NCBI RefSeq assembly: GCF_002005165.1 | Contig: NZ_CP019699.1 | Location: 2,790,001-2,854,000, forward strand | Length of the DNA stretch: 64,000 nt | From: Novibacillus thermophilus | GTDB taxonomy: Bacteria > Bacillota > Bacilli > Thermoactinomycetales > Novibacillaceae | Direction of reading: 5' to 3' | Shown here: piece after piece, positions 57,731-64,000 of the stretch | How positions within the stretch are numbered: the stretch's first letter is position 1 | How the letters are laid out: each line of letters starts with the position of its first letter | Program-made: the position numbers and the translations under genes | The notes under the pieces: model-generated | Seen by the model: only the letters and a program-made list of their open reading frames with translations | The model's database searches: none | What the model was told of the DNA's origin: nothing

Positions 57731-59143
57731 TTGAAAGGGCATGAAATGTTCACTGAGATGGAATTGGAAGCGATCGTCCGCTTCTCCCACGACAATATCG
57801 TCATTGCCGACGGAGAGGGCACTGTGTTGCGCGTCAGCCCCAACTGCACGGACATTTACGGAAAAGAACCGTCGTACTTAATTGGCAAGACTGTGTTTCA
57901 ACTGGAGAAGGAACGCATTTTTGCTCCCTCTGTGACCGTCAGAGTGTTAAAAGACAAAAAGGAAACTCAGGTCATGCAAAAGACGAAAAACGGACGCATC
58001 GTGATGGCGACAGGCATTCCCATTTACGATGACAACCGAAACATCGTCAGGGTCATCAGTTTTTCCCACGATTTGACCGAACTCGAGCGGCTAAAAAACG
58101 ACTACGAAGCGTTGCAGGCCAAAATGGAACGGTATGAAACCGAGATCGAAGAATTGAAAGAAAAGGTAGCAAAGGACCAACACATCGTTGTGAAGAGCCC
58201 AAACATGGAAAAAATATGGAAACTCGTGAACAGGGTCGCTCGGTCGGATGCGACGGTGCTCTTTTTGGGAGAATCGGGAGTGGGGAAAAACGTCTTTGCC
58301 CGCGCCTTACACGACGGAAGTACACGAAGGGAGGAAAGGTTCATCGAAGTCAACTGTGGCGCCGTTCCCAAGAACTTATTTGAATCGGAAATGTTCGGAT
58401 ACGAGGGAGGCGCGTTTACAGGTGCGGACAAACGGGGAAAACCCGGCATTTTTGAAATGGCGGATAAAGGGACGTTGTTTCTCGATGAAATTGCAGAACT
58501 GCCCTTGGACATGCAAGTGAAGCTGCTGCAAGTACTGCAGGAAAGGAAAGTGACGAGAATCGGCGGAAGGGAAGCCAAGCCCGTGGATTTTCGACTCGTA
58601 GCGGCGACGAACCAGGATTTAGAGAGCCTGGTGAAACAAAAAAAGTTTCGCCAAGACTTGTTCTACCGTTTGAATGTCGTTCCCATCGCGATCCCGCCGT
58701 TACGCGAACGCAAAGAAGATATTTATCAACTGGCGCACTACTACTTGTCCAAATTTAATGAGAAATACAACATGCACAAAATGCTCCACACCGCAACGGT
58801 TGACGCGCTTATCCACTACGATTGGCCCGGGAATGTGCGGGAACTGGAAAACTTGATGGAACGTCTCGTCATCACGTCTGAAAGGAACACGATATACCCC
58901 CATCACCTTCCTTTCGCCACCCGAGAGGAAGCAGGTGACTACGAAAAGCACGATTGGAGTGTGTTAGAGACATTTGAACACCGGGGCCTGACCCTGCAAG
59001 AGGCCTTGAGAGAAGTGGAGAAAAACTGGCTTACGAGGGCGTATCGCCAATATAAAACAACGTATGAGATGGCGCAGTATTTAGGGGTGAGTCAGTCGAC
59101 AGTCGTCCGGCGGCTAAAAAAATACGGCATTAATTCAAAATGA
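57731..59143 (+). CDS. Sigma-54-dependent transcriptional activator with PAS sensor
   Basis: A 470-aa enhancer-binding protein. Order: PAS domain (about 10-115), a coiled linker (about 116-150), the AAA+ domain with Walker A GESGVGKN (180-187), sigma-54 contact loop GAFTGA (227-232), Walker B TLFLDE (248-253), and a C-terminal Fis-type helix-turn-helix (MAQYLGVSQSTVVRRL). The TTG at 57731 after AGGGGAGGTGG gives a clean PAS start; a further ATG upstream at 57665 is less likely. It stands directly before a sigma-54 promoter and probably controls the ureohydrolase and aldehyde dehydrogenase. Confidence 0.94.
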   Translation: MKGHEMFTEMELEAIVRFSHDNIVIADGEGTVLRVSPNCTDIYGKEPSYLIGKTVFQLEKERIFAPSVTVRVLKDKKETQVMQKTKNGRIVMATGIPIYDDNRNIVRVISFSHDLTELERLKNDYEALQAKMERYETEIEELKEKVAKDQHIVVKSPNMEKIWKLVNRVARSDATVLFLGESGVGKNVFARALHDGSTRREERFIEVNCGAVPKNLFESEMFGYEGGAFTGADKRGKPGIFEMADKGTLFLDEIAELPLDMQVKLLQVLQERKVTRIGGREAKPVDFRLVAATNQDLESLVKQKKFRQDLFYRLNVVPIAIPPLRERKEDIYQLAHYYLSKFNEKYNMHKMLHTATVDALIHYDWPGNVRELENLMERLVITSERNTIYPHHLPFATREEAGDYEKHDWSVLETFEHRGLTLQEALREVEKNWLTRAYRQYKTTYEMAQYLGVSQSTVVRRLKKYGINSK

Positions 59144-59160
59144 ATGAAATCATTCAAAAT
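59137..59160 (+). promoter_or_regulatory. Palindromic activator site (UAS) upstream of speB
   Basis: TGAATGAAATCATTCA (59141-59156) is a perfect palindrome with a 2-base centre, flanked on both sides by ATTCAAAATGAAT-like repeats. The regulator stop codon TGA at 59141-59143 is part of it. It lies 81 bases upstream of the -24 element, a usual distance for enhancer-binding proteins. Confidence 0.7.
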
Positions 59161-59236
59161 GAATCGACACAGTGATCATAATTCAGGATTGAATCGGATG
59201 ATGACGGGTCACAATAGGAATACTCGTCTTTTTTTT

Positions 59237-59252
59237 TGGCACGATATTTGCA
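59237..59252 (+). promoter_or_regulatory. Sigma-54 (-24/-12) promoter of speB
   Basis: TGGCACGATATTTGCA matches TGGCAC-N5-TTGCA exactly: GG at 59238-59239 and GC at 59250-59251 are separated by the required 10 bases. It is 44 bases before the speB start. Confidence 0.92.
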
Positions 59253-59295
59253 AAAGCTTTAAAGGGGATCGAGATTTTTGTATAGGGGGAGAATC

Positions 59296-60246
59296 ATGTA
59301 CGGACCGAAAGACTCTTCTCAATCACCTCGCTTTTGCGGGACGCGAACGTTTATGAGACTGGAGCAAATCCGGACGACGGAAAATGTAGACTTTGTCGTC
59401 GCAGGTGTGCCGTTCGACACAGCGGCGTCCAACCGCACGGGACAGCGCTACGGTCCTCAACACATTCGCAATTTTTCCGTACTGTTGAGGCCGTACAATC
59501 CGGATCAAGACATCAACATTTTCGATTACTGTTCTGGGGTAGACTATGGAGACATCGACGTCATACCCGGCAACGTTCACCGGACGTACGACAACATTGA
59601 GAAAGAACTGACACACATTTTGAACCAGTCTGTAACGCCGATTCTCATGGGAGGCGACCACTCCATTACACTGGGGCATTTACGGGCCTTTCACAAGAAG
59701 TACGGCCCTGTCGCTCTCATTCAGTTCGATTCCCACGGCGACACGTGGGACCACTACTACGGCGAAAAGTATATGCACGGAACGCCTTTCCGCCGGGCGG
59801 TGGAAGAGGGCCTGCTCGACGTCGACCACTCCATCCAAATCGGAATGCGCGGTCCGCTGTACGGTCCCGAGGACATTGACGATGCAAGGCAACTCGGATT
59901 TCACGTGTTGACGATGCGGGACGTGCGGCGGCTGGGGTATGACGACGTGATCAAACAAATTCACGAGCGGGTAGGGGATCGACCGGCCTTCGTTACCTTT
60001 GACATTGATTTTGTCGATCCGGCTTACGCACCGGGGACCGGAACACCGGAAGTCGGAGGGCCGACCAGTTACGAAGCGTTGGAGTTTGTCAGGGGACTGG
60101 ACGGTCTGAACTTAGTAGGCTTTGATCTCGTCGAGGTACTGCCTGCATACGACAGTGGTGAAATGACAGCCATAGCGGCTTCAGCCGTTATGTACGAGAT
60201 GATTACCCTAGTGGCGCTGAAAAAGCGTCGCGAACGAGAGGGCTAA
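59296..60246 (+). CDS. speB: Agmatinase-family ureohydrolase
   Basis: A 316-aa binuclear-manganese ureohydrolase. Metal ligands are visible in GGDHS (His122), DSHGD (Asp145, His147, Asp149) and FDIDFVDP (Asp236, Asp238); HGTPFRRA and APGTGTPEVGG are conserved. Agmatinase (agmatine to putrescine and urea) is the default call. Guanidinobutyrase or another guanidino-compound hydrolase is equally compatible, especially with an aldehyde dehydrogenase next to it. The ATG at 59296 follows GGGGGAG. Confidence 0.88.
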   Translation: MYGPKDSSQSPRFCGTRTFMRLEQIRTTENVDFVVAGVPFDTAASNRTGQRYGPQHIRNFSVLLRPYNPDQDINIFDYCSGVDYGDIDVIPGNVHRTYDNIEKELTHILNQSVTPILMGGDHSITLGHLRAFHKKYGPVALIQFDSHGDTWDHYYGEKYMHGTPFRRAVEEGLLDVDHSIQIGMRGPLYGPEDIDDARQLGFHVLTMRDVRRLGYDDVIKQIHERVGDRPAFVTFDIDFVDPAYAPGTGTPEVGGPTSYEALEFVRGLDGLNLVGFDLVEVLPAYDSGEMTAIAASAVMYEMITLVALKKRREREG

Positions 60247-60331: not shown

Positions 60332-61780
60332 GTGACTCAATTGTTTATTAGCGGCCAGTGGGTTGAGGGAGAGGGGGACGAACGAAAAATTGTCAATCCG
60401 GCCAACGGAGACGTAATCGACGCAGTCCGTGACGCGACACCGGACCAAGTGTCAGATGCGATCAGCGCAGCTCTTAACGCCTTCGAACGGACGGATTGGG
60501 CGACGAACGTCAAGAGACGTATCGACGTGCTGCGGCGCACGGCGGACGCCGTCCACCAACGCGCCGACGAAATCGCCCGGATAGAGACAGAAAATACGGG
60601 GAAACCGATCCGGGAAGCTCGTTTAGATGTGGAAGACAGTATCACGTGTTTACACTATTACGCCGATCTGGTGGAAAATCGGACGCCTTGGACAAAAACG
60701 ATGCCGGACGGCACCACGAGCCGTGTAGTGGAAGAACCGGTCGGTGTTACGGGTTTAATCGTCCCGTGGAATTTCCCGCTGTTGTTAGCCGTATGGAAAC
60801 TGGCTCCAGCTCTGGCTGCCGGCAATACAGTCATCCTAAAGCCGTCTGAGTTGACACCGCTCAGCATTGCGCGTTTGACTGACCTGCTTCACGCATCCGG
60901 TTTGCCCGAAGGAGCGTTTAACCTCGTCCTCGGAGGCGGGGAAGTGGGACAGGGAATCGTCCGCGATCCCCGTGTGGACAAAGTATCCTTTACCGGGAGT
61001 GTCGCAACAGGTCAGGCGGTTTACGCTCAGTGCGCCGAAACATTGAAGCGCGTCTCCCTTGAATTGGGAGGAAAATCGCCGCTCATCATCTTCGATGACA
61101 TCGATCTGGACCATGCGGCCGAGTGGATGATGTTCGGTTCGTTTTTCAACCAGGGCGAAGTGTGTGTTGCGGCATCCCGCATTCTCGTCCATGAGCGGAT
61201 ATTCAAGCCGTTTACAGAACGGCTTATCCAGCGCGCCCAAAACATCAACATAGGCGATCCTCTATCGGAAGAGACAGAGTTAGGGCCCCTCGTTAGCGCC
61301 TCTCACTTGGCCAAAGTGCAGTCGTATGTGGAGATAGGAAAGCATGAAGGGGCGCGTTGCTTGTTTGGAGGAGAGGCCCTCGAACAGAAACCGGGCTACT
61401 TTTTTCAACCTACCGTGTTCGTCGATGTGAAGCAGGACATGCGCATCGTGCAGGAAGAGATTTTCGGCCCCGTGGCCACCGTTCAGCCGTTTCAACACGA
61501 AGAAGAGGCCATCGCATTGGCAAACGGGACGAAATACGGGCTGGCTGCCGGCATACTCACCAATGATACCGATCGGGCAGAGCGAGTGGCTTCCCAGATA
61601 AAAGCTGGAACGATTTGGATAAACGGGTATCACACGCCTTACGTGGAGGCGCCGTGGGGCGGATTTAAATTCAGCGGCATGGGCAGGGAACTCGGTCCTC
61701 ACGGTTTAGCCCATTACGTCGAATACAAACACGTGAACGCGCGGCCAAAGTTTGATCAGCTCGGATGGTATTCTTCATGA
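60332..61780 (+). CDS. Betaine/aminoaldehyde dehydrogenase-type ALDH
   Basis: A 482-aa NAD-dependent aldehyde dehydrogenase. PWNFP (Asn147), LELGGKSP (catalytic base Glu244) and NQGEVCVAASR (nucleophile Cys278) are intact. The sequence is of the betaine/4-aminobutyraldehyde/guanidinobutyraldehyde dehydrogenase group. GTG 60332 lies 11 bases after AGGAGG; the GTG at 60320 overlaps it. Likely co-transcribed with speB. Confidence 0.9.
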   Translation: MTQLFISGQWVEGEGDERKIVNPANGDVIDAVRDATPDQVSDAISAALNAFERTDWATNVKRRIDVLRRTADAVHQRADEIARIETENTGKPIREARLDVEDSITCLHYYADLVENRTPWTKTMPDGTTSRVVEEPVGVTGLIVPWNFPLLLAVWKLAPALAAGNTVILKPSELTPLSIARLTDLLHASGLPEGAFNLVLGGGEVGQGIVRDPRVDKVSFTGSVATGQAVYAQCAETLKRVSLELGGKSPLIIFDDIDLDHAAEWMMFGSFFNQGEVCVAASRILVHERIFKPFTERLIQRAQNINIGDPLSEETELGPLVSASHLAKVQSYVEIGKHEGARCLFGGEALEQKPGYFFQPTVFVDVKQDMRIVQEEIFGPVATVQPFQHEEEAIALANGTKYGLAAGILTNDTDRAERVASQIKAGTIWINGYHTPYVEAPWGGFKFSGMGRELGPHGLAHYVEYKHVNARPKFDQLGWYSS

Positions 61781-61789
61781 AAGGAGGGC

Positions 61790-62040
61790 ACGATTTGGCT
61801 TGCCCGATTCTGTTGCGCACAACGGTTGTACTTGACCCGGCGTTTCCAGCCGGGTCGGGTTAGCCGCATTCTCGTTGTAACGGACCGTGTCATTCGGGAA
61901 GCAGGGCTCATTGAAGGCGTTTTAAACAGTTTAAAAAAGACGCGTTCCCCTGCGTCGTATTCAACAAACTTTCTGGCGTTCAGCTTTTCGGTCCGCAAGA
62001 CTTTCAACAGTTGCGAACGTGGCTAAAACGACACCGATAA
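61790..62040 (+). pseudogene. Relic of an iron-containing alcohol dehydrogenase
   Basis: The segment RILVVTDRVIREAGLIEGVL (61862-61921) is the nucleotide-binding start of type III (Fe) alcohol dehydrogenases. The frame breaks around 61940, where another frame continues as FPCVVFNKLSGVQLFG, then ends. No catalytic domain remains. It occupies the space between the aldehyde dehydrogenase and the transporter, about 306 bases without an intact gene. Confidence 0.6.
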
Positions 62041-62086
62041 CGGCAACTGTCTTAAAATATTTTCGTTCCTTGAAAGGATGGTTGTC

Positions 62087-63385
62087 ATGGAAAAAAGCAT
62101 GACGGCAAGAAATTTTAACGAAAAGCTGCCTTTTAAAGTTAAGCTGGCGTACGGTTTATCTGGTTACTACAGCTTCATTACGTGGACAGCTTTCAGTTAT
62201 TACGGATTGTACTTTTTTACAGACGTAGTGGGTCTCTCAGCCGTGTTCGCAGGGGCGATCATTTCACTCGGTACTTTATGGGATGCAATAACCGACCCCG
62301 TCGTTGGAGGTATTTCTGACAACCTTAAGAGCAAATATGGAAGAAGGCGTCCGCTGATTATTGGTGTTGCACTTCCATTCGTGATCCTCAGTATACTGAT
62401 GTTCACAAACTGGGGATTCAGCGAACCTGTTGCGAATGTATATTTTGTAATCATGATTTTACTGTATTACACAGCACAGACCGTACTTGATATTTCATCA
62501 TCAGCCCTTGGATCCGAAATGACATTGGACTACGATGAAAGGTCTACACTTGCGACGTACAAGAATTACTTCGGCCTGATGGCAACCGTTGCGATCAGCC
62601 CTACACTCGTACTGGTAGCGTATTTTGGGGGATGGTTTGAAAATGCCGATTTCGGTTGGAGCCTCACTCTGGGCGTTTATATGATTGTTGCACTTGTTTT
62701 CATTTTTATTCTTTGGAGAACAACGAGAGGATATGAAAGACACAGAGAAGAAGGTATAAGTAAGTTCTCGATTGCCGATATCAAAGAATTGTTCAAAAAT
62801 AAGGCAGCGAGAATTGTTGCCATTATATTCGCACTCGGAATTTTCTCAAATACTATCAACTATGCAATTCAGGTTTATTACTTCACAAACTATGTGCAGC
62901 TGACTGAAGGTCAAATTGCAAGCATTACCTTGGTGTTTGGTGTGGCAAGTATTATTGGAGCCTGGATTGTTGACATACTTATGAAGAAATTTGGTAAGAA
63001 GTTGGCGTGGATCATCGGCGTTGGATCTGAAGGGATCGTTTTGTTTGCCATGGTTGGACTATTCATTCACCCAGGACAAATTGGATTAATTTATGCATTG
63101 GTCATTCTCATGGCTGTTGGCAATGCTGCAGTTTACCAGGTACCTTGGGCGATGATCCCTGACTGTGTTGATGTTACTGAACTTTATACAAACAAGAGGA
63201 TGGATGGAATCATATTTGGAATCATTGCTTTCCTTCAAAAGGCTTCAGGTGCTTTAGGTGCAGCATTCCTTGGTGTTTTGCTTTCAGCAATCGGATATTC
63301 TGAAGCAGCTGTACAGTCACCTGAAACTGTTTCAGGCATTAAGAACATTTTCGGATTTCTGGTTGGAGGTCTCTATATCGTTTAA
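62087..63385 (+). CDS. GPH-family sugar:cation symporter, C-terminus disrupted
   Basis: A 432-aa MFS transporter of the glycoside-pentoside-hexuronide group with about eleven membrane segments. DAITDPVVGGISD in the loop between helices 2 and 3 and SKYGRRRP are signatures. The frame stops at GGLYIV; a typical cytosolic tail (KEKHDRVREAVKERRR) continues in another frame at 63386-63473, and much of helix 12 is missing. The gene is clearly more AT-rich than its neighbours, which suggests transfer. ATG 62087 follows GAAAGGATGG. Substrate unknown. Confidence 0.82.
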   Translation: MEKSMTARNFNEKLPFKVKLAYGLSGYYSFITWTAFSYYGLYFFTDVVGLSAVFAGAIISLGTLWDAITDPVVGGISDNLKSKYGRRRPLIIGVALPFVILSILMFTNWGFSEPVANVYFVIMILLYYTAQTVLDISSSALGSEMTLDYDERSTLATYKNYFGLMATVAISPTLVLVAYFGGWFENADFGWSLTLGVYMIVALVFIFILWRTTRGYERHREEGISKFSIADIKELFKNKAARIVAIIFALGIFSNTINYAIQVYYFTNYVQLTEGQIASITLVFGVASIIGAWIVDILMKKFGKKLAWIIGVGSEGIVLFAMVGLFIHPGQIGLIYALVILMAVGNAAVYQVPWAMIPDCVDVTELYTNKRMDGIIFGIIAFLQKASGALGAAFLGVLLSAIGYSEAAVQSPETVSGIKNIFGFLVGGLYIV

Positions 63386-63473
63386 GGAAAAACATGACAG
63401 AGTTCGCGAAGCAGTTAAAGAAAGAAGGCGGAGTAAAGAGATCGATATGTCAGAGTTGAAAGGGCTGATTTAA
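63386..63473 (+). pseudogene. Out-of-frame C-terminal tail of the GPH transporter
   Basis: In the frame different from the transporter, SFKEKHDRVREAVKERRR and a 10-residue end resemble the usual cytosolic tail of GPH carriers (YxLxEKKHxxI..LxxRR). It shows that the transporter suffered a frameshift with loss of part of the last helix. Confidence 0.65.
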
Positions 63474-63516: not shown

Positions 63517-63577
63517 AACCTCTTTGGGTAAGGTTCATGCGTTCCTTGCCATATACCCATAGAGGTTCACTTTTTTT
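63517..63577 (+). terminator. Terminator after the transporter region
   Basis: AACCTCTTTGGGTA (63517-63530) pairs with TACCCATAGAGGTT (63554-63567) with one mismatch, followed by CAC and seven T. Confidence 0.65.
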
Positions 63578-63725
63578 GTCTTAGCATTGAGTAAAGGCTG
63601 CCGGAATCAACCGTCAAGGCCACCGTGATGAATGGTATTACCGGATACACCACGACGGTTGGCGCCCTGATTATCCACTATGAGCGGCCCGGGAATGTCG
63701 GAAACTGGAAAGCGTTAATTCAAAA

Positions 63726-63741
63726 TGAATGAAATCATTCA
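63726..63741 (+). promoter_or_regulatory. Second copy of the UAS palindrome
   Basis: TGAATGAAATCATTCA is identical to the copy at 59141-59156. Confidence 0.75.
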
Positions 63742-63822
63742 AAATGAATCGACACAGCGATCATCATTCAGGATTGAATCGGATGATGACGGGTCACAAT
63801 AGGAATACTCGTCTTTTTTTTT

Positions 63823-63838
63823 TGGCACGATATTTGCA
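63823..63838 (+). promoter_or_regulatory. Second copy of the sigma-54 promoter
   Basis: TGGCACGATATTTGCA, identical to the copy at 59237-59252, with the same GG-N10-GC spacing. The T-run ahead of it is one base longer. It faces only gene fragments inside the window. Confidence 0.85.
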
Positions 63839-64000
63839 AAAGCTTTAAAGGAGATCGAGATTTTTGGATAGGGGAGAATCGTGTACGGACCAGGGAGAGG
63901 TGTGTATGGCGGCATCTCGCGTTCTCGTCGATGAACGTATATTTAAAGCCGTTCTGTAAACGGCTATCCAGCGCCATTCAAAATAAGCGATCCTATATCG

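What the first reader, a model, noticed from the sequence alone, without database searches (positions are those of the whole stretch)
63649..64000. Shrunken duplicate of the sigma-54 locus keeps its promoter and activator site intact
The last 350 bases repeat, in order, the activator end, the UAS palindrome plus -24/-12 promoter, the speB start and a slice of the aldehyde dehydrogenase, with large internal deletions. The coding pieces are clearly decayed, but about 170 bases of regulatory DNA are about 95% identical, including a perfect UAS and a perfect sigma-54 core. Either the duplication is recent with mosaic deletions, or the regulatory part is kept because it still drives something past the window or binds activator as a decoy.
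Basis: seen in the sequence. Interest (0 to 1): 0.8.

Follow-up and report, generated by a model that had tools for sequence, protein, structure and literature searches.

The report
Duplicated operon split by reciprocal decay
A bacterial gene cluster was copied once and the two copies then lost opposite halves, so the leftover promoter at the window's end looks like a scrap but is most likely the working switch for the second half of the cluster, just beyond the window; it is a rare visible half-way stage of how bacterial operons get rearranged.

Summary
In detail: 63647-64000 repeats the locus at 57.7-62.0 kb. A 180-base regulatory block is 96% identical, its double UAS and -24/-12 core are unchanged, and the coding pieces around it are decayed. 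Extending past the window explains why. The decayed pieces run to the aldehyde dehydrogenase (ALDH) stop at about 64292 and are followed directly by an intact iron alcohol dehydrogenase (ADH, 64307-65461), a small ORF, an NCS1 permease and two nitrilase-family enzymes. Copy 1 holds intact activator, speB and ALDH but only a decayed scrap of that same ADH (61781-62040). Each gene covered by the repeat is thus alive in one copy and dead in the other; only promoter and UAS survive in both. Differences polarised against relatives agree: ALDH changes lie in copy 2 (15:2), ADH changes in copy 1 (8:1). Best reading: one sigma-54 operon was duplicated and lost opposite halves, leaving two units under one activator, with a terminator-like hairpin between. 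A decoy is unnecessary; an assembly artefact is unlikely. No expression data exist, and a second horizontal acquisition is not excluded. The process is known in principle (SNAP model); a visible intermediate inside one operon is unusual.

The parts
57731..59143 (+). Copy 1, intact PAS / AAA+ sigma-54 activator gene (470 aa), the only activator copy left; predicted to act on both promoters
   Evidence: Pfam Sigma54_activat 2e-69, PAS_9, HTH_50; GAFTGA motif visible in the translation
59134..59163 (+). Copy 1 UAS: two TTCANNNTGAA dyads 19 bp apart, starting 103 bp before the -24 element
   Evidence: same double dyad at 104-105 bp in two relatives (L005, L025); only two perfect copies in the genome
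59237..59252 (+). Copy 1 sigma-54 -24/-12 promoter TGGCACGATATTTGCA
   Evidence: consensus match; a -24/-12 element sits 49-76 bp before speB in most relatives that have the activator next to speB; Sigma54_DBD gene present in the genome
59296..60246 (+). Copy 1, intact speB-type (agmatinase family) gene
   Evidence: Pfam Arginase 4e-94; NCBIfam agmatinase models over cut-off
60335..61780 (+). Copy 1, intact aldehyde dehydrogenase gene
   Evidence: Pfam Aldedh 3e-174
61781..62040 (+). Copy 1, decayed Fe-alcohol dehydrogenase (Shine-Dalgarno and 5' end, large internal deletion, scrap of 3' end); the intact partner is in copy 2 beyond the window
   Evidence: 61782-61965 = 64294-64501 and 61993-62038 = 65339-65385; in-frame stop at codon 14, residues off the family consensus
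62078..63385 (+). GPH-family sugar:cation symporter between the two copies, G+C about 0.40 against about 0.54 around it, probably a later insertion; its C-terminus appears frameshifted
   Evidence: Pfam MFS_2 5e-68, TIGR00792 over cut-off; composition; no other copy in the genome
63517..63578 (+). Terminator-like hairpin with U-tract between copy 1 unit and copy 2 promoter
   Evidence: -22.3 kcal/mol, z = -2.5; not reported by the simple scan, whose loop limit is 8 nt
63647..63711 (+). Copy 2, remnant of the activator gene (65 nt, 82% identical to 58788-58850)
63712..63891 (+). Copy 2, regulatory block (activator last codons, UAS, spacer, promoter, leader, first 11 nt of speB), 96% identical to copy 1
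63719..63748 (+). Copy 2 UAS double dyad, identical to copy 1
63823..63838 (+). Copy 2 sigma-54 -24/-12 promoter, identical to copy 1; predicted to drive ADH-small ORF-NCS1-nitrilase-CN hydrolase beyond the window
   Evidence: downstream genes in L083 (window coordinate = L083 coordinate + 62999):
63889..64000 (+). Copy 2, decayed aldehyde dehydrogenase (continues to about 64292 outside the window), followed by intact ADH from 64307
   Evidence: hairpin-loop inversion 63946-63965 against 61206-61225

Best explanation
The ancestral locus was one sigma-54 operon: activator, then UAS and -24/-12 promoter, then speB - ALDH - ADH - small ORF - NCS1 permease - nitrilase - CN hydrolase - SSS symporter. 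At least the stretch from the activator to ADH was duplicated in direct orientation. The copies then decayed reciprocally: copy 1 kept activator, speB and ALDH and lost ADH; copy 2 lost activator, speB and ALDH and kept ADH joined to the rest of the operon. The UAS and promoter are the only part of the repeat with function left in both copies, because each copy still has genes behind it. The single activator, with sigma-54 polymerase, is predicted to fire both promoters, turning one operon into a two-unit regulon. Shown by sequence: the repeats, reciprocal decay, polarity of changes, intact motifs and intact downstream genes. Inferred: that the copy 2 promoter is active, that it is needed, and that the copies arose by duplication rather than a second acquisition.
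For: Reciprocal collinear decay. Intact ADH, NCS1, nitrilase and CN hydrolase straight after the copy 2 remnants. ADH has no other close copy in the genome: next best full-length match 36% identity. Polarised amino-acid changes: relatives side with the copy 1 ALDH at 15 of 18 differing codons (2 against) and with the copy 2 ADH at 8 of 14 (1 against); a nonsense codon lies in each dead copy. The regulatory block is more conserved than the decayed coding pieces (p = 0.0055 substitutions, 0.0023 with gaps) and none of its 6 substitutions falls in the UAS or -24/-12. The double dyad and its roughly 104-bp distance to the -24 element recur in relatives with 68% identical activators. The UAS occurs perfectly only at these two places in 3.63 Mb. 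A sigma-54 gene is present. A terminator-like hairpin lies upstream of copy 2, with no terminator-like site on the plus strand between its promoter and ADH.
Against: No expression or binding data. The leader from the copy 2 promoter to ADH is about 455 nt of decayed, mostly untranslated sequence, which could invite Rho termination. No relative with the unsplit operon was found, so the ancestral order is read only from the two copies here. A 69-nt block at the ALDH end and ADH ribosome site is also 100% identical (p = 0.0009), so patchy gene conversion could account for part of the conservation. The rate test covers only 176 bases. Chance retention of the whole UAS-promoter interval by random placement of the kept blocks is about 4%.
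Confidence: 0.8

Rival explanations
1. Two acquisitions instead of one duplication: a second, already diverged version of the operon arrived by transfer and recombined next to the first, then the same reciprocal decay followed.
For: The NCS1 gene of this operon is absent from 41 other genomes of the order and 398 others of the class that were sampled, and the nearest relatives of ADH-small-NCS1-nitrilase are in Siminovitchia, so the cluster is mobile. Decayed pieces differ by about 10-12%. A foreign-looking GPH gene sits between the copies.
Against: The copies are adjacent, in the same orientation and collinear; the 69-nt block is 100% identical and the promoter 96% identical; no near relative carries a candidate donor. 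It changes the first step, not the present function.
Confidence: 0.15
2. The promoter block is a chance survivor of a dying duplicate and drives nothing of use; ADH and the genes after it are expressed from elsewhere or are themselves on the way out.
For: The SSS symporter at the end of the operon is frameshifted. The kept blocks could include the UAS-promoter interval by chance about 4% of the time.
Against: Lower divergence than the flanking debris, no change in any motif position, intact ADH, NCS1, nitrilase and CN hydrolase, sigma-70 promoter-like sites in the region at background level (12 found, 9.2 expected) and none stronger than 9 of 12 on the plus strand near ADH.
Confidence: 0.12
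3. The copy 2 UAS is kept as a decoy that titrates the activator.
For: Two perfect dyads are kept.
Against: The -24/-12 core is kept as well, which a decoy does not need, and intact genes lie behind it.
Confidence: 0.02
4. Assembly artefact (mis-joined or collapsed repeat).
For: Reads are not available here.
Against: Single-contig genome, completeness estimate 100; the copies differ by many substitutions and indels polarised in opposite directions; flanks differ on both sides.
Confidence: 0.02

Closest known systems
SNAP model of gene-order change (Brandis and Hughes 2020, PMC7055797)
   Same: Segment duplicated, then different genes inactivated in each copy, so that neither copy can be lost. 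The paper names pseudogenes with matching active copies as the intermediates to look for.
   Different: The model speaks of regions of tens of kilobases and more, driven by selection; here the repeat is about 4-5 kb within one operon, gene order is unchanged, and the lasting result is a second promoter inside the operon. Selection for the duplication is not shown.
[quoted passage not shown]
   Same: Same proposed route to operon separation.
   Different: There inferred from end products; here the decayed intermediates are still readable.
Duplication-degeneration-complementation (from general knowledge)
   Same: Complementary loss makes both copies necessary.
   Different: Usually stated for regulatory or domain subfunctions of one gene; here whole genes are lost and the regulatory element is what stays double.
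Bacillales activator-speB sigma-54 clusters (for example Scopulibacillus L005, Oceanobacillus L025, Geobacillus L018/L023)
   Same: Activator next to speB, -24/-12 about 55-63 bp before speB, and in L005 and L025 the same double-dyad UAS.
   Different: Single promoter, no ADH behind ALDH, no duplicate.

Membership tests
Sigma-54 dependent promoter with enhancer | TGGCAC-N5-TTGCA core | tested here: met
   Both copies TGGCACGATATTTGCA
Sigma-54 dependent promoter with enhancer | Upstream activator site at about 100 bp, conserved in relatives | tested here: met
   Double dyad 103-105 bp before the -24 in both copies and in L005, L025; near matches in L035, L042
Sigma-54 dependent promoter with enhancer | AAA+ activator and sigma-54 in the genome | tested here: met
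Sigma-54 dependent promoter with enhancer | Activator-dependent transcription start at each copy | not testable with these tools
   no expression data
Duplication with reciprocal loss (SNAP-like intermediate) | Two collinear copies in one chromosome | tested here: met
Duplication with reciprocal loss (SNAP-like intermediate) | Different genes dead in each copy, each with a live partner in the other | tested here: met
   ADH dead in copy 1, activator/speB/ALDH dead in copy 2; polarity 15:2 and 8:1
Duplication with reciprocal loss (SNAP-like intermediate) | Copies arose by duplication within this lineage, not by a second transfer | tested here: inconclusive
   no unsplit or freshly duplicated relative among 41 order and 398 class genomes
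Duplication with reciprocal loss (SNAP-like intermediate) | Duplication was kept by positive selection | not testable with these tools
   needs population or experimental data

The most novel reading that the evidence does not exclude
The locus is a readable intermediate of operon fission: duplication plus coding decay gave an operon a second copy of its own enhancer and sigma-54 promoter in its middle, and selection now keeps both so that two halves of one pathway can be read as separate units under one activator.
Probability: 0.5. Interest if true: 0.6.

Novelty: new variant of a known kind. Interest (0 to 1): 0.5.

Why it matters
Models of how bacterial operons split and gene order changes rest mostly on end products, and the authors of the SNAP model note that a finished event leaves no unique trace and that intermediates must be sought (PMC7055797). 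Here the intermediate is still legible, with dead gene pieces on both sides and a shared enhancer-promoter kept in both copies. It also shows a simple way for an operon to gain an internal promoter with the same regulation. The locus gives a clean test bed: delete one promoter and ask which half goes silent.

Tried and rejected
Decoy: rejected as unnecessary, since intact genes follow the promoter. Assembly artefact: unlikely. Unsplit operon in relatives: not found in the order (42 genomes), the class sample (399), 21 genomes behind speB loci or the family of G407 (34); the nearest gene sets are in Siminovitchia with a different order and no -24/-12 match before speB (L039, L041). Other copies of the regulatory block in the genome or in plasmids: none. 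Known RNA element in the region: none. Special structure of the copy 2 leader: none, z = 0.06. Other copy of the GPH gene or of the 63.48-63.65 kb spacer in the genome: none, apart from the known activator piece. Microhomology at deletion junctions: 0-3 nt, uninformative. Literature on reciprocally decayed operon copies: only the general models came up. The substrate of the pathway was not settled.

Full report
Observation. The last bases of the window do repeat the earlier sigma-54 locus. Repeat finding and BLAST give, in order, activator piece 63647-63711 (82% to 58788-58850), regulatory block 63712-63891 (96% to 59127-59306) and ALDH piece from 63889 (77%, with indels, to 61149-61359). The UAS (two TTCANNNTGAA dyads, 19 bp apart) and the -24/-12 core TGGCACGATATTTGCA are identical in both copies.

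What lies past the window. The window is bases 2790001-2854000 of a single 3,629,225-base contig. Reading on (L083; window coordinate = L083 coordinate + 62999), the debris continues as decayed ALDH to its stop codon near 64292: 64081-64224 = 61468-61609, then 64228-64501 = 61716-61965. Immediately after it comes an intact Fe-alcohol dehydrogenase (64307-65461, 384 aa, TTG start behind AAAGGAGG). It is followed by a 56-aa ORF (65479-65649), an NCS1 permease (65681-67075), a nitrilase (67062-68135), a second CN hydrolase (68224-69042) and an SSS symporter broken by a frameshift.

The other half of the story is inside the window. After the intact ALDH of copy 1, bases 61781-62040 are a decayed remnant of that same ADH: the ribosome site and 5' end, a large internal deletion, a scrap of the 3' end and an in-frame stop. 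So the two copies complement each other: activator, speB and ALDH live only in copy 1, ADH and the rest only in copy 2. The regulatory block is the only part of the repeat with function left in both.

Polarity. To ask which copy changed, differing codons were compared with relatives: 12 ALDH relatives of 56-60% identity side with copy 1 at 15 of 18 differing residues and with copy 2 at 2; five ADH relatives of 52-67% identity side with copy 2 at 8 of 14 and with copy 1 at 1. Each dead copy carries a nonsense codon. This is not what a misassembly would give. ADH mismatches are spread evenly over codon positions (9, 8 and 7 for positions 3, 1 and 2), as expected for a dead gene.

Is the promoter kept by selection? 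The regulatory block has 6 substitutions in 176 aligned bases, the decayed pieces 63 in 652 (Fisher p = 0.0055; with gaps 0.0023). None of the six lies in the UAS or -24/-12. Limits: a 69-nt block at the ALDH end and ADH ribosome site is also perfectly identical (p = 0.0009), so gene conversion or a need for the ADH initiation region may act too; and by random placement of the kept blocks the UAS-promoter interval would survive whole about 4% of the time. The case rests on the sum: motifs intact, lower divergence, intact genes directly downstream, and a terminator-like hairpin at 63517-63578 (z = -2.5) cutting off copy 1 read-through.

Are the UAS and promoter real? In relatives with the activator next to speB, a -24/-12 match lies 49-76 bp before speB in most loci. 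In L005 and L025 (activators 68% identical) the same double dyad lies 104-105 bp before the -24, and L035 and L042 have a close variant. In the window's genome the double dyad occurs perfectly only at these two places, and a sigma-54 gene is present.

Origin. The NCS1 gene of the cluster is absent from other sampled members of the order and class. Its closest gene set is in Siminovitchia, in a different order. The cluster was probably acquired horizontally before it was duplicated (inference), and a second acquisition in place of the duplication cannot be excluded. A GPH symporter of markedly lower G+C (about 0.40) now lies between the copies; the original duplication junction is not readable.

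Verdict. This is a duplicated operon caught part-way through reciprocal loss, most likely leaving a two-unit regulon under one activator. It fits the duplication, inactivation and fixation steps of the SNAP model (PMC7055797), in miniature and within a single operon. The decoy idea is not needed. Expression remains untested.

Noticed in passing
61206-61225 and 63946-63965: The loop of a small quasi-palindrome (AGCCGTT-TACAG-AACGGCT) is inverted in the decaying copy (AGCCGTT-CTGTA-AACGGCT), the signature of a template-switch or hairpin-loop inversion.
   Followed up: partly
62078-63472: GPH-family symporter of low G+C; its open frame ends at 63385 while a plausible charged C-terminus continues in another frame to about 63472, so it seems frameshifted.
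   Followed up: partly
L083:6084-7486 (beyond the window, 69083-70485): SSS-family symporter at the operon's end is split in two frames near a G run; either a real frameshift or a sequencing error.
   Followed up: partly
L083:7809-9368, minus strand: Transposase-like ORF (HTH domains, weak rve match) directly after the operon.
   Followed up: no
61717-61785 = 64229-64297: 69 bases at the ALDH 3' end and ADH ribosome site are 100% identical between copies although the surroundings differ by about 10%; gene conversion or constraint on ADH translation start.
   Followed up: partly
L083:2480-2650 (beyond the window): 56-aa ORF with one hydrophobic stretch before the NCS1 permease, no Pfam or NCBIfam match, but with relatives (53%) next to NCS1 genes in Siminovitchia; perhaps a permease partner peptide.
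   Followed up: no
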